A DNA stretch of 64,000 bases from Fragilariopsis cylindrus CCMP1102 (Eukaryota; Bacillariophyta; Bacillariophyceae; Bacillariales; Bacillariaceae): positions 1,116,001-1,180,000 of the forward strand of contig FMBT01000291.1 of NCBI GenBank assembly GCA_900095095.1. The letters are read 5' to 3'. Each line of letters begins with the position of its first letter. The first letter of the stretch is position 1. Under the pieces are notes generated by a model, which ran no database searches, was not told the DNA's origin, and saw only the letters and a list, made by a program, of their open reading frames with translations. A program made the translations under genes and the position numbers. Positions 33,237 through 47,383 of this stretch are shown piece after piece.

Positions 33237-34094
33237 CTATTCAGATCCGAAGTGTCCTCCCTTACCTAAGGCAAAGTCACTGAGAACCTTGATAGCGTCT
33301 TCCTTTTCCTTAATGGTTGTCTTGACTAAATCTTTGATGGATAACATACCTTTCAATTCACCATTGTCCACGAGAGGAAGATGACGAATATCAGATGCAA
33401 GCATTTTTTCCATACAAGCTTGGACCGTATCATCTGGTTTGACTGTAACTAGCTTACTGCTTTGAGTGGCAATTTCCTTCACCATTGTATCCTTTGAGGT
33501 ACGACCAAGTAATGCAATTTTTGAAATGTAATCACGTTCACTAATAATTCCAGTCAAATCACCTATTATAATAAATATGATAATAATAATATTAAAAACA
33601 AAACCAAAAACACAAGTAAGTATTTATTATGACACAAAAAATATTTAAGTATAATTACGATGAAAGTAAAAATACCAGCACGAATCGTTCAATAACCAAC
33701 AGTAACAACAACAAAATAAATAATAGTAATTATTATATCGGTTATCTTAGTGAATAATCCAATATCAGCACAACCCGTACGTATGATACAATAATGTTTC
33801 AACATAACGCATTGCATATCATAATAAAGAGACCACATAGGAGTAGTTAGGTGCCGGTAGCCTAAACTTACCAGCATCATTTACAGTCACAAGACAACCA
33901 ATGTTGTGGGCTGCAAATTGTTGTACGGCATCAATAACCATAGCACCTTCGTTGATTCGATACTCGATGTTACTGTATCCACTCAACTTTGCAGCATCAC
34001 CGGCAGTAAGCGTCTCACCGGCGGTAGCGAATCCTCTGACGGCTGTGGAGCGTGCAGCACTTCGTGCAACGATTGGAGCAATTTTTGACAACAT
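33237..34094 (-). CDS. Mitochondrial CBS-domain pair protein
   Basis: A small protein consisting of one CBS pair, a module that binds adenosine nucleotides. It resembles the plant CBSX class that regulates mitochondrial thioredoxin, but the role here is inferred. Exon 1 is 34094-33872, the intron 33871-33563, exon 2 33562-33237 (182 aa, frame intact). The N-terminus (MLSKIAPIVARSAARSTAVRG) is a typical mitochondrial presequence: Arg, Ser and Ala, no acids. CBS1 covers about residues 40-95 (VIDAVQQFAAHNIGCLVTV...GIISERDYISK). CBS2 covers about 110-165 (TVKPDDTVQACMEKM...IRHLPLVDNGELKGMLSIKD). The intron falls inside CBS1. Confidence 0.88.
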
Positions 34095-34735
34095 ATTGTT
34101 TTAAGGAGTTTGGTTTTGATTTAGTAAATTATTATTATTATAAAAATCTTTTGCGAATGATTATTTATTTGTGGAAGGAAAGTGTGCAGTAGTGACCGAA
34201 TAAAATAGAGCAGAAAATACCGTTGAGACGAAGCAAAAATGAATTTGTGAATGAGAAAATGAATGAACATCGACGACCGTAGAGCGAAAATGCCGGAACG
34301 CTTTTTTTATCATGCGCGACATGAATCATATTGAAAAAAGTACAGCGCATCGCTCATTATTATTAATTTAATAATAAACCTACTAGAGTAACTTATCTAC
34401 TCTACGGTAAACAATAATGTATGTATGAACGGATAGATGCGTGGCAAAAAATGAAAACGGATGGATAGCTGCTACACTAATTGGCAAAGAGAGCTTTCCT
34501 CAGATAAGTCCCACCAGCTTTTTAACTGACATGATGTAACAATATATTTGCAGGACTATATAAATATAGGTCCTATATCTACGTATACAGTACATGCCAA
34601 AATAAAACCACGATTCATTATATTAATTGATTGGACATTGAATATTAAATGAATCTAACAACTAATTAAGAAAGTAGTATTACCTTAAGATTTGATTTAC
34701 TCGCATCGAAAAAATGATGTACTTGTAGTCTTTTT
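34095..34735. other. Intergenic between CBS protein and SF1
   Basis: About 640 AT-rich bases between two minus-strand genes. It carries the CBS-gene promoter and the SF1 3' UTR. No gene is seen. Confidence 0.4.
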
Positions 34736-36935
34736 TTAATTTTCCCACCAATTGAAACCACCTGCTCCACCTGCTGCACCATTACCATTACCATTTCCTT
34801 GCCCGTAATATGCGGTATAGTCCCAGGTTTGGGGTTGCTGTGGCTGATTTGGCTGTTGCTGCTGATTTGGTGGTTGCTGCTTTTGTTGATTTGGCTGTTG
34901 CTGCTGTTGATTGTGCATCGAATACTGCTGCTGCTGCTGATTTGACTGTTGCCCATGACCTTCATGACCTCCATGACCTCCATAGTAATTACCGCTACCA
35001 CCACCATCATGTCGTGGGCCACCGTGATTGGGATTGCCGTACTGCTGATTTGGCTGTTGTTGTTGATAGTGATTTGAATTTCCATATTGGTGATTGGTGT
35101 TACCCGGTGGCGGTGGCATTGGGGGAGGAACTCCAGAGATACCAGATGGAGGTGGTGGTGGCAAAAGAGCACCACCAACAACATTTGGAGGAGGTGGGGG
35201 CAATCCAGTAGTCCCAACATTTGGTGGCGGCGGTGGCGGAGGAATTCCAGATGGAATAGGAAGATTCGTGCGGGGTGGAACTCCAACAGTACTTGGCGGG
35301 GGAGGAGGAAGGTTGGGACGATTCGCTGGTGGAGGAGGGAGACTCCCTACACCACGACTTGGTAGTGTTGGTGCCCCAGGAGGAGCTTGTGAAGTGGCTT
35401 TCTCCACCTTTTTCCCGTCTAGTTCTGCCATGAATGACATGTAATCCGAATCCATTTCTTTTGTATTCGCCGGTCTTTCAGCAGGTTTTTGTGTACAATC
35501 CCTAGTCGGGTGACTCGTATCGCCACAAATTGCGCACTTAATTTGAACAGTATTTTTCTTGTTCATGCTGAATCGTTTAGGACATTCAAAGGATCTGTGA
35601 CCCTTTTCACCACAGATTTGACAATACTCATCGTCTTTCAATGTACCATTCAAAAGTGCCAATTCTCGGAGTTGCAGTTGCTTGTGAACATTCTTTTCAT
35701 CATCGATAACTACCAACATTTGATTAATCATATCCGTCGCTGCATCGACCGATCGTTGGTCATCCCCAGTAACAACAACATGAAGGGGTTCATCGTCGCT
35801 ATCCATGACCTTGCCATCTCGTCGTCCTCTTGCTCCTTGCTTAACCGAACCGCGCCCGCGGATCGCGATCTTGCATCCCGTTTTGGACTCTAATTCTTTT
35901 TGTGTCTTTCCACGCGGTCCGATGATTAATCCAATAAAGTTGTATTGTGGATGTAACTCGACAGGAATTCGTATTTTATTGCTTCGTTTGCGTTTAAATA
36001 GTCCTGATTGACGTGTGGCTGGATTCATACTCATGAGTTTTTCAAGGACGTCGTGACGTTCTGCTGTGTATCGTTGACGCCAGCGAACGGCCCTAGTATT
36101 TTTACGTTTACCATCCGCACCGTACACTAAGTGTGTTTGTGATGAGTACATCATGAATTAATCAGATGCAAAACAGAAAAATGAAACAAGAATATTAAAA
36201 AAATTCAAAAGTTAGTTGGGAAAAATCAAATACGTCTCTCAACTGTTACAATTTCAAAAGGATGTACTTACCTGGTGGTGGAGAAGGCGATCTTTCTCGA
36301 TGACCTCTAGGTAAGGAGTCCACCCGAATGGCTTCAATTTCAAGACCGTCTAGTTTCTGGTTTGTTTCTCGTAATCGACCTTGTAAGGTCCTCATTTCTT
36401 GTTGCTGCTGGGGTGTCAAATTAGTTGGCATGCCTGGAAGTCCCAAGCCAGGAATTGGTTGCATTGCTGCACCACCGCCGCCTCCTCCTCCAGATGGTCC
36501 ATAATGGCCGGGGATAGATGATCCCGTTGGAGCAGCATTTGTTGATGTTGTCGTGTTTGTTTCATCTCTTCCCCATCGAGACCGACGTTTGTTTGCACTA
36601 TTATCCTGTGTGTCGTTCTTATCCGCGTTACCCCAACGCGAAGAACGTTTCTTACGAGGAGCGGCGTCATCTTTTACTTCATCAGTTTTCGATTCTTGTT
36701 TCACTATTGCGGGAGATGACGCTCCTTGGGTATGTCTTAGATAAGTTTTACGAGCTTCCTTCCATCCAGCCCAATTCAAGACTTCTTTCCATAAACCTGG
36801 ATACGACCCAAACTTATTCCGTAATGCCTCGGCGGAGGGACTGTCACTGTCGTTAAACCATTTCTTCATTACAACATGCTCTCCACGAATAGTAGCAACC
36901 AATTCGGCGGCTTCTTCTGACGATGAGCTACCCAT
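34736..36935 (-). CDS. SF1: Splicing factor 1 / branchpoint-binding protein
   Basis: Recognises the intron branch point during early spliceosome assembly. Exon 1 is 36935-36272, the intron 36271-36127, exon 2 36126-34736 (684 aa, frame intact). Exon 1 opens with an extra domain (about residues 10-75: VMKKWFNDSDSPS, LWKEVLNWAGWKEARKTY) and two RRSRWG/RSSRWG U2AF65-binding-like motifs. It ends at the conserved RERSPSPPP. The join gives VYGADGKRKNTR, the family's linker. Exon 2 has the KH-QUA2 domain (IGLIIGPRGKTQKELE, IAIRGRGSVKQG), two CCHC zinc knuckles (CQICGEKGHRSFEC, CAICGDTSHPTRDC) and a Pro-, Gly- and Gln-rich tail ending FNWWEN. The Met at 36935 is preferred; the frame stays open to 36998. 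Confidence 0.92.
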
Positions 36936-37484
36936 CTTACTTGCGTGTAAGCCTCTTGCTTCTGCTTTATAGTAGTAGAGTTGGAATACACTACACAATG
37001 GCCGAAGAATAAATTGTAGGTAGTTTTGCGTCTGGTATGATCACAATGAAACAAACAAACAAAACAACAAAGAAAGACAACGACTTTACGAATCACACTC
37101 ACGGTGCTTTTGTACGTACAGGAATTCTATGGGATTGATTTGAGTGGTTATTCTTTTAAGACGAACCGATGTACTTATACCCGTGATCAAATCCAGTCAC
37201 GTATAATATATCAATGAAAGCATGAAAGACTACTATAAATTGTATTCAGGGCAAAGTACAGCAAGAGTAAGAGAGTCTTCAGCTACGAAAAGGTTCAGTT
37301 TCAACAAAGAATGAGAAGATAGGAAACGTACACCAAGCTAGACAGTGGAATGAATCACTTGCTAGTCATACGTACTCCTCTAAGACGAACGAACTAAATC
37401 TCATTCAATATAGAAAGTAGGTCCTGTTATTTTAAAATTTTAGTTAAGTAATAGTTTTACATTTCTTGTAGGTTTATAAGATAT
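36936..37484. other. Intergenic between SF1 and TPI-GAPDH
   Basis: About 550 bases holding the SF1 promoter or 5' UTR and the 3' UTR of the fusion gene. No gene is seen. Confidence 0.4.
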
Positions 37485-39569
<2,085 letters not shown>

Positions 39570-40322
39570 TTTGGATACGAGTTTAATTTATTAATTTAAT
39601 ATAATAGAGCAGAGTGGATAGTATGAGAGCAAGATCGCTGTCGATAAAATTTTTTGTTAGCGACGCCAACCAAAGTCGAATGAAATCGACGAGATTGATT
39701 CTGTCATTTACTGCCGCGAGCACAAGGGTCATTAATTAACCTAGCTGCTACTAGCACTTGTGCATATACACATTAAAAAATTGCATTCTAAATTTCCGGA
39801 ATTTAATTTTTTTTCTGAACAGGCGATTAACGGCTACTTTGTTATTTGCGATGTGAAATAGACGGCTGCAAATGATACAAATCAAACACGTCATCTAAAT
39901 ACTCGAGTGAAAAAGGCAAAAAATATTAAATATGAAATTAAGAGATTCCTTTTTAATGCTAAATATACGCAGCTTCTGTATTTTGATAGAATTTGAAATA
40001 ATTTATCAAAAAATATGAAACATACCGTTTTTTACTATCACAGAAGTACGACATACACGCGAACCGCAAAGCTTCGCCAATAAATAAACAAATCTTTGAA
40101 TACGTCTGCCTCGTCATCGCTGACTTGAAAATCTAAGAAGAATGATGTCGCAAATAACGACAAACTACTAGTAGAACGGTAGCCGTTGCTTAGCACTGTA
40201 CTAGTAGCTTAGCCAGTCATTTGTGCGTACTATCATTGAGAGATTCATTCGACCAAATTCGACGGACGACAGGAACACAAATTAAAAATCATTTCAAAAG
40301 TTTCTCAAATAAATAAATAAAT
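39570..40322. promoter_or_regulatory. Divergent promoter region of the two GAPDH genes
   Basis: About 750 bases separating the TPI-GAPDH fusion and the cytosolic GAPDH, transcribed away from each other. Both promoters lie here, so the two glycolytic genes could share control elements. It is AT-rich; I cannot assign specific sites. Confidence 0.5.
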
Positions 40323-41583
<1,261 letters not shown>

Positions 41584-42077
41584 AGAAATAAAATGACATT
41601 ACTCTAGTAGATATAATTTGTACATTCTATTCTATTCTCTCTCAATCTATCTACTATTTGATAAATGCATACACGTAAATAGGATCACAAGCTCAAATAT
41701 TGTAACTCGTTGGTATATTTCAATTTTTCCCTGTCAAACAGAACTAATTTGGCAAATAATTCCCATTTCTTTCTGCCAATTATTGTTGTTGATAGAATTC
41801 AAACATTTAAGAAATGCCTCAATCTACGGCGGGTCTAATAATTATTATTGTGCGTATAATAACTCGCAACGAACACATTCGTGGCAACTTTCCTTTCCTT
41901 TTGAAAATGGCTAACTAAGATAAAGGAGAAAAAAATATATATAGTATCGGTAGGACATGCTATAAGTATACATATTATCTTGTCGTAGCAAACCTAGTAG
42001 TTTAATATAACATTCCACACCTAACTCTAGAATGATGGCGTGGATTTCAAAGATCATTAATACGTCAAAATAACTAA
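41584..42077. other. Convergent intergenic GAPDH / SNF5-like gene
   Basis: About 490 bases between two gene ends. A small open frame at 41618-41914 has no protein-like features. Both 3' UTRs are expected here. Confidence 0.4.
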
Positions 42078-45000
42078 CTATACAGTGACAACGGAAAAAC
42101 GTGCTTCTTTGCCAGTTTGCTGCAAGTCCTCCATTTCTTCATCTTCTAGGCACTTCCTCTTTCGAGAGACAGATTCATCTACCGGTAGATCGGCTGCAGG
42201 GTTCGATGTTATTCGTTGATCATCAATCATACAAATGGCAGATTCGTTCGCAGACGACACGTTTCTTGATTCTTCGGTTCTTGCTGATAGATTTCCGTCA
42301 TTTCTTCAGGATTAACGTTCTGAGTTGCCTTATCTTGGATTTCCGTCGCATGAGGCAAGTTGTCAATTTTTGTAGCTTCCTTTGCTTTTTCTTCTTCCAA
42401 TAGATTGCTACAGTCTACTGTTTCCCAAATGATACCGTCTACATTTCGATCTCCATCCAGATAAAACTTTTTGAAATTCTCGAGTGTTCGGGCCTCGGAC
42501 TCGGGAAAACTTGGAGAACAAAGTATAGTCTGCATCCAGTCTTCGTGGGCGAAAGATATATCTTCAAAACCGACTAAATTTCTATCCGTCACCAGATCTT
42601 TCTTTAATATGGTGCAATTTCTCCAGGAAGGTAAAATACTGCTATGGGTATCAGAATCGGTGACGAAGGCAGTTTGTGATTTCGTTGATATTGTTTCGAC
42701 TTTTATCAAATCTTCTTCTTTCTCGGGTAATATAGGCCGACGCCACTTCATTCCGTCAATTCCATTCCAATCACCGTTTCGAGGAAGGTCGGTCAGTTTA
42801 TTTCGTAATTCATCAATATTAACAGTTTTTGACAAATCTGACGATGATAGTGCTTCTTCAATCGATCGAAATACGAATGTGCATTGTTTGTGTTGCATAT
42901 CGATCATATCACAAACAGGTTTTACAAAGGTGACGTTTCCTTCACTCAAATCCTCTAAAAAGAGCCAACGATAGCCAAACAGAAGCGATGATGGGTCGCT
43001 TGCACTCTTCAGTGCAATCAACTTCAGGTTCAGACCAGAGGGACCCCCGTTCCATTCGCAACGGTGTCCCAACTTTAGTAGTATCTGAGCAGCTTGTGAG
43101 GCACTTTTGACTGTGGAGTACGTCTTCACGACCCGCCCGCTCACAGTATCCAGAATCGCAATCGGTTTGCCGCTGCCCGTGCTCTTGAGATTGATCTTCG
43201 ACTTCGATTTCGGTTTCTTCTTCTTAATAGCATTCTCCTTCCATCGCATTGACTTATCAACACATTCCTTGGACGGTGTTTCATTCATACGGCTACCCCA
43301 TGCATTTTCAAATTCTTGAGAGTAAACATAAACGCCTTTTTTCACTTTTTCACTAAGTCTATGATCGATACAATGTCTTCGAATCATGATAACCCGTCTA
43401 CGGAGCACAGCTGCCATACGAGAAACAGTGCTTCTTATAACATTGAACTTGATGCAATTACGCCAAATTAACTCGATATCAGTTAGTATTATTACTATTA
43501 GATCATCCATCGAAAAGTTTCCATCAAGCAGTTCGGTATAGTCTCCGTTGATTAATTTAGAAGATATTGTACTAAGATCCATAGGACGTTTGACGATATC
43601 TTTATAACCAGGAAATTCAGAAGTGTCGACTGGTGTACTGAAGATTTCCCCGAATTCTTTGTAGTCCATAAGATTTTGGAGCATCTGATGGATGACACTG
43701 AGAACTTCCAAATCTTTGATAGATCGTCCATCAGTTATATCTAAATTCAAAAAGGCTGCACTGATCGCATCTATCGATTCCTTCCCATCCATAAAATATT
43801 CGTCTGAATCAGTCTCTTCCTTCTTACAAACATAGCACACCCATTGATCATCCCATTGATTCGATTGGTGATAATTTGCCATGCACTCTTTATGAAAGGA
43901 GCGCGGACAAAAGTCACAGCATATCAGATCTCCACCGGTCGTACAAACATGACAGTGGCTGACATTGCCATCTTCTTCATCTTGTAGCTTTGCATTATCT
44001 GTTGCCAGTAGAGACGACCCTGGTTTCACTCCTCTGTCGTTTTGCAGCCAGGCATCTGGTAAATCATTGACTTGTTTCTGTCCCTCTGCAGAAAACACTG
44101 TGAAGTATACATCGATTGTTCCAGCTTCCAATTCTTTACCGTTACTGCAAACTTCCCTAGCAAAATCAGTCAATGGAGGTCTAGGTACCATCGTTTGTCC
44201 TGCAAGCTGAACAGTCCGCGTCTTCTTAATATATGTTGGTGATTTTTGATCTTCTTCCTCGAATGTGTCCTCCTGATTTTGTTGTTCCTCAATTTGACGA
44301 CGTAGATTCTCTTCTCTTTTCTGTTTTGTTATCATATCTACAGCGTGATTCAGTTCTGTAGGAACGATACTATTAATGCACGGAGATAAGATATCGGGGA
44401 AATAGACTTCCGATATTCCTTCTCCTGCTGTATAGATTTCGCCTTTAAAAGTGTTGCTACGTTTTTAAGTTTCCGTTGACATCTAGCGCACTCGCATGTC
44501 AAACAACAAATAGGACAATAATGATAGGCGAAAATCCCGGATTCCCCTGTGACCCCTAATCTCGTCTAATGATATATGCAAAAGAAGGAGAAAAGAAAAA
44601 ATATAAACATGAGTCGTCACGTCGCACCAAATGTCATGAATACAAAAGACAGAGTAGCAAAAACTTCGATACAATCCGGAACTCACCTCCATATGCTGTT
44701 TACAGTACAGATGATTTTTACGGCTACATGCAAAGCTGTAACAAAATTCATGCCGTTTTTTACAAATATGACAGAGACCATTTGGCTCCATAACCCCTCT
44801 TATCCCAATTTTGCAATTTCGACTGATATCTAGAATCGATTCCTCCCGAGATCGTCTTTTAACCTCGTCGGTTAGTTCCTTCCCGATATGATCGACAGTC
44901 CACACAGCAGTTGGTTCCAGATTATTATCCTGTCGTCTTCCATTACTACCTGGATTGGTCCCGCTCGGATCCGATACTAGACTGCTGTTATTTCTGGTTT

Positions 45001-47383
45001 GTCCAGGACTAGCAGCAGAACGAGATTTTGTAGCCGTCCGGTCTTTCTTTAGTTTAAAAGTACCGCTCTGACCTGTCTTGATGACTTCGTCATATCGGTA
45101 GGCTTGCATGGTCGGTCCGGCATGTCGAGGTCTCTCCGTGTGTTGCTGTGGGTTCTCAACTGTAATAGGCTCACGGAATTGCGTTGTTGCTGTAACATGA
45201 GTTTCAACTTGTTGGTCTATAGACGCGGCCAAATCCATGGTTTGCCCAAAAGATAGCCCGTACTCTCTAGCTATCGATGCAGCAAAAGTGAGCGGCGTAG
45301 GTGTACTTTTATCTGATAGGTCCCAAGTAATGACTTCTCTATAAATTGCTTTCTGCGAAGATCTTATTGTTGATTTTGGTGCTTCGTTGGAGTCCCCTAT
45401 TTCTCCATACATAGCTTTATTATTCTGATCGTTTCTGCCATAGCCGTTAGAATTGTTGTAGTTATGGCATTTTTCGTTGTTGTCGATGCTTTCATCGTCG
45501 TCGTCGTCATCGTCATCGTCATAATCATCCTCTTCGTTATCTTCTTCCAAAGGAAATTCTATTACAATAGAAACGATCGATTTCGGTGCATCTAAGTCAT
45601 GGTTGGTATCTGTAACTTCTTGAGTAATCAGCAATCCCCAGTCTCTGCATCTCGTGGTTCCATCCCTTCTCTACCTAGATGATAGGTATACATATCCAAA
45701 ATCTTTTCATTGCTACGACTATTATCCACTTCGCCACCTTGAGTATCAGAATCAATGACAGTAGTAGCAGTATTAGTATCATAGCCAAGACACTGTACGT
45801 GACAATCGTATTTAGGCACAACACCTCCCGACCGTCTCAATAATTTGCTATTTTTGTTGTATTTATTCTGTTTACGGTTGTTGCTTGAATTGTTTTCTAG
45901 ATCGTGATTGTTGCTACCTTGTATTGATGATTTATCCGTTCTTTCTATTTTCATTCCTAAAATATTTAACGGTATACCCATCACTTTCACTCCTATATCA
46001 ATTTCCGCCGGTTGTTGTGGTTGTGGTTGTTTTGCCGGTGGCTGTATTAGTGGTGGTATCGGACAACAAGAAATCGCTTTTTCTCCTGTTCCCTCCGAAG
46101 AATCTACCAGAATTAACGATCCCGGTGTAAGCTGATCGTCTATCTTATTCTGAGTTTGGTCACATGATCCATCATTATTTTCATTCCTACAGGCATCAAC
46201 TTCTTTCTGCTGTTGAACGGAAGTAGAAGAAGGTGTATTTGTTGTAACGACATCTGTTGTTTGTATCGATATCGATTCTGCTGCTGTCGCTATCGGCGCC
46301 GCTACCGCTACCGCTACCATTGTCGTTTTTGTTTCCGCCGTATCGGTCAGATGTTGTGGTTGCTGCAGGTCTTTGGATAATGATTGTGAAGAAGGTGTAG
46401 GTGAAGATTGAGAAGTTGATTGATTTTCTAATATTGTGGATTGTCTTGCTACAGGTATGGGCGAAGACAAAGCTGATGTTGATGATTCTATTGAGTACGC
46501 CGGTGGATCTTTAAGTTGTGCAGTAATCGTCGTATTCGTATTCGTCGTCGTGTTTGAATCTAAATCGTTTTTCTGCTGCTGCTGCTGCTGCTGCTGATTG
46601 GAAGGAGGAGGGATTGGTATTATTATATTTGTCGATTTAGTACTATCAGCAATTCTTCCTGGAGTTTCTATTCCTGTTGCAGTGGCTAAAAGTGATAGTG
46701 TTATTGATTTATTACCGATCCGTCTCATTCTTTGGGCTTTCTTTTTGTACGCAATACATGTACTACGTCTCCGTGATCGCTGCAAACAAAACGAAACAAG
46801 GGGGGTAAATAAATGATAAGATAAAATAAAATAAAACAGAACAAGAACGTTAGGAAAGGGAAAAGCTGTTTCGTTTCTCCTATTTCTTGTGGGAGAAATA
46901 ACACTGGGCAAAATATATATTGTAGTATAATATAATATAATATAATATAACGTCGACATCGACATAAACATCTTCGTTATTATAGTACAATTTTTGTGCA
47001 CGTACTTCGTGTGGAGATAAGAGATCAGCTACACCCCCTACAGCAGTCCATCCCCATCGAGGAGGATCAAAAAGACTCATATTCATAACCCTTTCTGCGT
47101 ATTCGCAATCGAAATCTTGAGGTGGTTGTAGTGACGGAGGTAGAGGTGAAGGTGGTGGCGGTGGCAATGGAGGAGGAAGGCTTTGTTGTGGAAGCGTTAC
47201 AGTATTATTATTTTCTTCTTGTCGTTCCTGTTGTTGCTGCTGCTGCTGTTCCTTCTGTTGCTGCTGGGCAGTGCCAGAGCCAGAGCCATTGTCGGTGCCA
47301 GCGCCGGGGCCAGTGCCGTTGCTAGTGCCAGTGCCGTTGCTAGTAGTATCAGTTGATTCAGGGCATTCGTTAATAGCAATCAT
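42078..47383 (-). CDS. SNF5-like / R1 zinc finger / PHD / bromodomain chromatin protein
   Basis: Probable chromatin-remodelling subunit. Exon 1 is 47383-47006 (Gln- and Pro-rich, then FDPPRWGWTAVGG), exon 2 46779-44687, exon 3 44565-42078. Introns are GTACGT...GCAG and GTGAGT...TTAG. Exon 2 has low complexity, then CLGYDTNT and MYTYHLGREGMEPRD, then a SNF5-type repeat (VSIVIEFPLEE; acidic insert; VITWDLSDKSTPTPLTFA...GLSFGQTMDLAASIDQQVE). A zf-4CXXC_R1-type finger follows (CHICKKRHEFC, CSRKNHLYC, then in exon 3 YCPICCLTCECARCQRKL). Next come a PHD finger (CHVCTTGGDLICCDFC...FHKEC...WVCYVC) and a bromodomain (FPGYKDIVKRPMDLSTISSKL, NCIKFN). The frame is broken near 45655, 44450 and 42262, each read as one missing base; correcting the last extends the protein to 42078. 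The segment joining finger and PHD has no alternative start, which favours one gene. Confidence 0.65.

What the first reader, a model, noticed from the sequence alone, without database searches (positions are those of the whole stretch)
42078..47383. SNF5 repeat, R1 zinc finger, PHD and bromodomain on one predicted protein
Seen: a SNF5-type repeat (WDLSDK...LAASIDQQVE), a CxxC-rich finger of the CDCA7 R1 type, a PHD finger and a bromodomain follow each other on one strand with splice junctions that keep the family motifs in register. Established: SNF5/SMARCB1 is a core SWI/SNF subunit and normally lacks PHD and bromodomain, which sit on other subunits. The R1 finger is otherwise known from DNA-methylation-linked proteins. 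Inference: one subunit may combine remodeller assembly with histone-tail and DNA recognition, which I do not know from other groups.
Basis: partly seen in the sequence, partly recalled or inferred. Interest (0 to 1): 0.75.

Follow-up and report, generated by a model that had tools for sequence, protein, structure and literature searches.

The report
Diatom SNF5-repeat chromatin reader protein
A diatom gene seems to join a docking module of a chromatin-remodelling machine to three chromatin-reading or DNA-binding fingers, a combination I did not find described, but the join in the middle of the gene still needs RNA evidence.

Summary
The four domains lie in the stated order on the minus strand of a diatom genome. 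The bromodomain is certain (Pfam 5.4e-17). The PHD beside it is sound: the pair matches TRIM33 at 7.7e-16. The SNF5 repeat and R1 finger score just below Pfam's cut-offs. The repeat is nevertheless convincing: it aligns to SMARCB1 repeat 2 at z 10.9 (0 of 2000 shuffles), and 19 of the first 20 fold matches come from SNF5 or SWI/SNF-family entries, though at weak E-values. It is ONE repeat, not SMARCB1's two; the genome has a separate SNF5, a SWI3 and a BRM. R1 keeps 10 of 11 CDCA7 cysteines and 1 of 3 ICF residues, so hemimethylated-DNA reading is not expected. 'Splice junctions in register' holds for the introns at 47.0-46.8 and 44.69-44.57 kb. It fails at 44.46 kb, between R1 and PHD, where the frame changes without a good splice pair; a weak intron or one-base assembly error would explain it. 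Two tandem genes would leave 14 bases between stop and start. Best reading: an accessory SWI/SNF reader that docks on SWI3 by its repeat. Conservation in other diatoms is untested.

The parts
47006..47383 (-). exon 1: start Met, Gly/Ser-, Gln- and Pro-rich N-terminus ending in FDPPRWGWTAVGGVADLLSPHE
   Evidence: open frame from ATG at 47383; donor GAA|GTACGT; no Pfam family
46780..47005 (-). intron 1, 226 nt, GTACGT...TTTGCAG
   Evidence: strong splice sites, frame kept
45675..46779 (-). exon 2: low-complexity, Gln/Ser/Thr/Asn-rich
   Evidence: open frame; no Pfam family in 46779-45691
45610..45674 (-). putative intron 2, 65 nt, GTAGAG...TTACAG; moderate sites, a frame change is needed here either way
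   Evidence: own reading of the sequence printed; frame kept in the joined translation
44687..45609 (-). exon 3: SNF5-type repeat with acidic insertion, basic linker, first half of R1 finger
   Evidence: open frame
45194..45583 (-). single SNF5 repeat (RPT): first strand 45583-45554, acidic insertion, core 45343-45194
   Evidence: Pfam SNF5 17.8-19.3 bits; alignment to SMARCB1 RPT2 z 10.9; fold and Foldseek; coordinates
44687..44776 (-). R1-type zinc finger, first half (cysteines 1-5 and the His at the place of the sixth)
44566..44686 (-). intron 3, 121 nt, GAG|GTGAGT...T-rich...ATTAG, splits the R1 finger
44464..44565 (-). R1-type zinc finger, second half (CPICCLTCECARCQRK)
44321..44463 (-). 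unresolved junction between R1 and PHD: frame 1 to frame 0; weak intron (44460-44321 or 44370-44321) or one-base assembly error
42227..44320 (-). exon with PHD, bromodomain and C-terminal region to the frame-0 stop
   Evidence: 745-aa open frame 44464-42227
43826..43954 (-). PHD finger
   Evidence: Pfam 23.1 bits, cut-off 24; TRIM33/TIF1-alpha, AIRE, CHD4 PHD chains
43391..43711 (-). bromodomain with the acetyl-lysine Asn (CIKFN; role of the Asn recalled) and PMDL motif
   Evidence: Pfam 62 bits, E 5.4e-17

Best explanation
One minus-strand diatom gene (47383 to about 42227) encodes a chromatin-reader protein of roughly 1,550 residues (1534 or 1564 for two intron choices): disordered N-terminus, one SNF5 repeat, a variant R1 zinc finger, then a TIF1-like PHD-bromodomain pair. 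Most likely mechanism: the repeat docks on the SWIRM domain of the cell's SWI3/SMARCC subunit, as each SMARCB1 repeat does on SMARCC2, beside or instead of the separate SNF5. The PHD-bromodomain pair then anchors that remodeller to an H3 tail carrying acetyl-lysine, and the R1 finger adds a DNA or protein contact. Shown: the domains, their order, the presence in the genome of SWI3, SNF5 and BRM homologues, and acidic residues at two positions that matter for SWIRM binding in SMARCB1. Inferred: that one mRNA spans 44.46 kb, the docking, and the histone and DNA contacts.
For: Repeat: its core aligns to SMARCB1 RPT2 (z 10.9, 0 of 2000 shuffles), RPT1 (z 8.1, 1 of 2000) and the genome's own SNF5 repeat (z 7.6, 0 of 2000), but not to a WNK CCT-like stretch that the Pfam SNF5 profile wrongly picks up (z 1.2, 241 of 2000). 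Its single-sequence model is strand-strand-helix-helix; 19 of the first 20 Foldseek matches are chains from SNF5 entries or SWI/SNF-family complexes (SWI/SNF, RSC, BAF, PBAF; for complexes the call does not name the subunit), the human SNF5/INI1 crystal structure at probability 0.94. Paper passages (PMC7506551): each SMARCB1 repeat binds a separate SWIRM; D202A with E210A lowers binding by about 42%. The window has Glu and Asp at those places (alignment, numbering from the 169-385 construct). Partners in the genome: SWI3 (SWIRM 45.3 bits plus SWIRM-assoc_1), BRM (SNF2, SnAC, bromodomain), SNF5 (29.1 bits). PHD-bromodomain: TRIM33 7.7e-16 across both domains. One gene: the first frame-0 Met is at 44335, 14 bases after the frame-1 stop at 44352-44350, and frame 0 upstream of that Met scores 3.1 bits, which 5.3% of 1121 stop-free wrong-frame stretches reach.
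Against: SNF5 and R1 are below Pfam cut-offs, and lower still in the whole model. All 55 Foldseek matches have E of 0.095 or more, on a model of mean pLDDT 58. The R1-PHD junction has no good splice pair. Coding scores are weak there: the frame-0 stretch upstream of the Met is reached by 11% of 163 out-of-frame, 17% of 421 noncoding and 47% of 401 antisense stop-free stretches; frames 0 and 1 tie over 44463-44352 (0.9 against 1.3 bits). The second R1 exon itself scores poorly in its frame (-11.0; 0.2% of 1625 in-frame windows are as low; frame 2 gets 3.3 but holds a stop), probably because it is cysteine-rich. No orthologue was found or could be searched in other diatoms. The acid before the first PHD cysteines in TRIM33 (NED) is missing here (NVS), so H3K4 reading is uncertain.
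Confidence: 0.5

Rival explanations
1. Two genes: an SNF5-repeat/R1 protein that ends just after 44.46 kb, and a separate PHD-bromodomain protein that starts at the Met at 44335 or further down.
For: The frame changes at 44.46 kb with no good splice pair; frame 1 stays open to a stop at 44352-44350 with coding scores no worse than frame 0 there; a Met in frame 0 follows at 44335.
Against: Stop and start would be 14 bases apart on one strand, leaving no room for a 3' end and a promoter; frame 0 is somewhat coding-like upstream of that Met (3.1 bits over 44463-44336; 5.3% of 1121 stop-free wrong-frame stretches reach it), though the older scores separate it less well (11% of 163 out-of-frame, 47% of 401 antisense).
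Confidence: 0.17
2. The gene is one protein, but it works outside SWI/SNF, like DDR or BAZ-type accessory proteins of ISWI or a TIF1-like corepressor; the repeat binds another partner.
For: R1 proteins with other modules (DDR1, DDR3) are reported to interact with ISWI orthologues (PMC10538959 passages); the PHD-bromodomain pair is closest to TIF1 proteins.
Against: No DDT, WHIM, RING or B-box family in the joined protein; the repeat has acids at both tested SWIRM-binding positions and a SWI3 is present.
Confidence: 0.25
3. The SNF5-like or R1-like stretches are chance resemblances inside a plain PHD-bromodomain protein.
For: Both are below Pfam cut-offs; the SNF5 profile gives a false positive of 25 bits on a WNK-like kinase in this genome.
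Against: Direct alignment separates SNF5 (z 7.6-10.9) from the WNK stretch (z 1.2); the fold search favours SNF5 and SWI/SNF-family entries; R1 cysteine order is kept across a well-marked intron.
Confidence: 0.08

Closest known systems
SMARCB1/Snf5/Sfh1 (SMARCB), Pfam PF04855
   Same: one strand-strand-helix-helix repeat with the W-[DN]-x-[SN]-[DE]-K core and acids at positions that matter for SWIRM binding
   Different: only one repeat, broken by an acidic insertion; R1, PHD and bromodomain added; the genome has another SNF5
TRIM33/TRIM24 (TIF1) PHD-bromodomain cassette
   Same: adjacent PHD and bromodomain, matched across both
   Different: no RING or B-box; PHD lacks the acid just before its first cysteines; SNF5 repeat and R1 precede it
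CDCA7 and other zf-4CXXC_R1 proteins (DDR1-3, IBM1 type)
   Same: 10 of 11 finger cysteines in order
   Different: sixth Cys is His; R274 to Lys, G294 to His; neither a stand-alone finger nor joined to DDT/WHIM or JmjC
SMARCG (DPF/PHF10, Rsc7, TPF) PHD subunits of SWI/SNF
   Same: PHD-bearing protein that would add histone reading to SWI/SNF
   Different: one PHD, no Req or CRC family found; carries a bromodomain and a SNF5 repeat

Membership tests
SMARCB (SNF5/SMARCB1) | sequence and fold of the SNF5 repeat | tested here: met
   Pfam itself is below its cut-off
SMARCB (SNF5/SMARCB1) | two tandem repeats | tested here: not met
   only profile positions 22-82 (22-89 in the trimmed piece) of 225 matched, one stretch
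SMARCB (SNF5/SMARCB1) | acids at D202 and E210 of SMARCB1 (SWIRM binding) | tested here: met
   Glu and Asp at the aligned places (mutants in PMC7506551)
SMARCB (SNF5/SMARCB1) | physical membership of SWI/SNF | not testable with these tools
   needs pull-down; SWI3, BRM and another SNF5 exist in the genome
CDCA7 (class I zf-4CXXC_R1) | eleven cysteines | tested here: not met
   10 of 11; sixth is His
CDCA7 (class I zf-4CXXC_R1) | ICF residues R274, G294, R304 | tested here: not met
   1 of 3 kept (R304); definition from PMC10538959 passages, letters, places assigned by me on the alignment from their spacing
zf-4CXXC_R1 in the wide sense (PF10497) | Pfam cut-off 22.7 bits | tested here: inconclusive
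   20.7 bits trimmed, 8.2 bits in the whole protein
TIF1 (TRIM24/28/33) | PHD-bromodomain cassette | tested here: met
TIF1 (TRIM24/28/33) | RING, B-box, coiled-coil N-terminus | tested here: not met
   no RING or B-box family in the joined protein; coiled coil not tested
DDR1-3 (R1 with DDT and WHIM1) | DDT and WHIM domains | tested here: not met
SMARCG | Req, CRC or tandem PHD | tested here: not met
   one PHD, no Req or CRC family; SAY is not in Pfam (PMC9170682 passage) and was not tested

The most novel reading that the evidence does not exclude
Diatoms have a second, single-repeat SNF5-type subunit that competes with SNF5 for SWI3's SWIRM domain and so defines an alternative SWI/SNF complex, one subunit of which carries assembly, histone-tail reading and a DNA-contact finger together.
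Probability: 0.3. Interest if true: 0.65.

Novelty: new variant of a known kind. Interest (0 to 1): 0.45.

Why it matters
SWI/SNF composition in diatoms seems hardly described; the subunit survey I read passages of covered animals, fungi, plants and two protozoa (PMC9170682). A protein that joins the SWIRM-docking repeat to a PHD-bromodomain reader would show that a docking module usually confined to a core subunit can be moved onto a reader. It would also offer a directly testable alternative remodeller in an ecologically central group. It would show too that an R1-type finger is used in yet another protein context.

Tried and rejected
Relatives elsewhere: viral contigs and genome contigs gave none, from exact short peptide patterns of single exons. 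A second copy of the junction: a 10-kb stretch of a duplicate contig (C518) is 99.92% identical, but ends at window 43628, and the DNA search found the junction at one place only. That duplicate differs by 2 substitutions and 6 single-base gaps in 10,005 columns, so single-base errors probably exist in this assembly; two of the six gaps lie within 20 bases of the contig end.

Rejected: the idea that this protein makes up for a BRM without bromodomain, because BRM here has one. Other R1 genes in the genome: two weak hits (20.1 bits with three stops, 14.7 bits). By my reading the first is an out-of-frame stretch over an ATPase-like gene and the second the RING of a helicase. The search also misses exon-split fingers, including the one in this window, and rang in none of its 14 control genomes, so absence is not shown. 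Rejected: L027 as a SNF5 gene; it is a WNK-like kinase by my reading. A 702-aa fold of the PHD-bromodomain exon was too poor to use (pLDDT 35). Coding scores at the junction were only mildly informative. R1 against PDB sequences gave no CDCA7 chain.

Literature: searches (full text, open-access part of PubMed Central only; one search found no paper; some searches listed 20 of 42, 15 of 298, 9 of 10 and 8 of 23) showed no title or abstract start describing this domain order. I read passages of three papers (PMC10538959, PMC9170682, PMC7506551) and only listings of the rest.
Full report
Where it is. The window is G000:C90:1116001-1180000 of a 67.9-Mb assembly in 818 contigs. The gene lies on the minus strand.

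Gene model. Exon 1 47383-47006, intron with strong sites to 46780, exon 2 46779-45675 (low complexity), a moderate 65-nt intron, exon 3 45609-44687, a strong 121-nt intron to 44566 that splits the R1 finger, then the second R1 half 44565-44464. The PHD and bromodomain are in a 745-aa open frame 44464-42227. Introns were called from GT-AG, frame and domain register only; no transcript was available.

The weak point. R1 ends in frame 1 and the PHD exon is in frame 0. One search lists the GT-AG pairs of at least 30 and under 250 nt within 44500-44150 (donor at or above 44350) that would restore the frame; to my eye none has both a good donor and a good acceptor. Candidates are 44460-44321 and 44370-44321. 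Alternatively the assembly has a one-base error. A duplicate contig differs from the window at 8 places in 10,005 columns, 6 of them single-base gaps, but it does not reach this spot. Coding scores (73 training ORFs, 34,253 codons): over 44463-44336 frame 0 gets 3.1 bits, which 5.3% of 1121 stop-free wrong-frame stretches reach; frame 1 gets -1.1. Over 44463-44352 the two frames tie (0.9 and 1.3). An earlier, smaller training (6,923 codons) gave frame 0 6.1 bits, reached by 11% of 163 out-of-frame, 17% of 421 noncoding and 47% of 401 antisense stop-free stretches. So the scores lean to frame 0 but do not settle it. Two separate genes would have the stop at 44352-44350 and the first Met at 44335, which leaves no room for gene ends. 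I put one gene at about 0.8.

The SNF5 repeat. Pfam gives 17.8 bits on exon 3 and 19.3 on the trimmed piece, cut-off 21.8, and 14.6 in the whole model. That profile is not clean: in this genome it also gives 25 bits to a stretch of a WNK-like kinase. I therefore aligned directly: SMARCB1 RPT2 z 10.9, RPT1 z 8.1, the genome's own SNF5 repeat z 7.6, the WNK stretch z 1.2, and a stretch upstream of the own SNF5 repeat z 0.0. A fold from the single sequence has mean pLDDT 58 with strands at 4-12 and 81-89 and helices at 98-109 and 113-129, the same order as the published SMARCB1 Rpt1 (PMC7506551 passage). Of the first 20 Foldseek matches 19 are chains of SNF5 entries or SWI/SNF-family complexes; 55 matches have E up to 10, none below 0.09, probability up to 0.94. 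WNK, OSR1 and SPAK CCT domains come lower (probability 0.18-0.33). The two strands are separated by an insertion of 70 residues, rich in acid at its start. No second repeat was found.

Docking. In SMARCB1 each repeat binds one SWIRM domain, and D202A with E210A lowers SMARCC2 binding by about 42% (PMC7506551 passages). One search aligns RDAFTWNMNEK of SMARCB1 with REVITWDLSDK here: D202 is Glu, E210 is Asp. The genome has a SWI3 (SWIRM 45.3 bits and SWIRM-assoc_1), a BRM with SNF2, SnAC and bromodomain and a separate SNF5 with a repeat of 29.1 bits. The exon before that SNF5 repeat looks by eye like a first repeat, but Pfam gave nothing for it.

The R1 finger. Joined across the intron it scores 20.7 bits (E 4.9e-4, cut-off 22.7), but only 8.2 bits (E 3.8) inside the whole model. 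Against CDCA7 letters (PDB 8tlk/8tle) it keeps 10 of 11 cysteines, the sixth being His. Of the ICF residues, R304 is kept, R274 is Lys and G294 is His (alignment and my reading). By the definitions in PMC10538959 (passages) this is not class I, so it is not predicted to be a CDCA7 orthologue or a hemimethylated-DNA reader. What it binds is unknown.

PHD and bromodomain. Pfam: bromodomain 62 bits, PHD 23.1 bits against a cut-off of 24. Sequence search of solved structures puts TRIM33, TRIM24 and TRIM66 PHD-bromodomain pairs in its first ten rows, TRIM33 at 7.7e-16 across both domains. The Asn that holds acetyl-lysine (recalled knowledge) is present (CIKFN). The acid before the first PHD cysteines, which in such PHDs helps to choose unmethylated H3K4 (recalled), is absent (NVS in place of NED), so histone reading by the PHD is plausible but not specified.

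Comparison and novelty. Each module is known. The combination was not visible in the listings of eight full-text searches of the open part of PubMed Central (several listings capped); this does not cover subscription journals or protein databases. Relatives could not be sought in eukaryote genomes; virus and prokaryote collections gave none. I rate it a new variant of a known kind, a domain combination rather than a new system, and would raise it if orthologues keep the order.

Noticed in passing
window 39388-37485 (-) and 40609-41583 (+): A triosephosphate isomerase frame that by eye runs on into the start of GAPDH, followed by a GAPDH frame on the same strand (fused TPI-GAPDH, recalled as typical of diatoms), beside a second GAPDH on the other strand about 88-89% identical in DNA.
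   Followed up: partly
window 19048-12824 (-): A 2074-aa open frame with many FG-type and SAPSPFG-like repeats, RanBP-type zinc finger and EF-hand pairs, the EF-hand plus finger block present twice almost identically by eye; looks like a nucleoporin with EF-hands.
   Followed up: no
G000:C518:60102-70101 (L036) against window 33625-43628: Duplicate contig 99.92% identical; 6 of 8 differences are single-base gaps, so single-base assembly errors are likely here, one difference at window 40105, about 500 bases upstream of the second GAPDH frame.
   Followed up: yes
L027 (G000:C109:42160-42456): A WNK-like kinase whose CCT-like stretch scores above Pfam's SNF5 cut-off (25 bits, cut-off 21.8): a false positive, or a hint that the two folds are related (Foldseek also lists WNK and OSR1 CCT domains).
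   Followed up: partly
L003 and L004 (G000:C134 and C490): A 684-aa (C134) or 582-aa (C490) frame with two bromodomain-like stretches; in C134 it follows, by eye, the end of an SNF2-type helicase, perhaps a CHD-like remodeller with bromodomains.
   Followed up: no
Whether the gene ends at 42227 or is spliced or shifted into this frame is open; the duplicate contig has the same letters here.
   Followed up: partly
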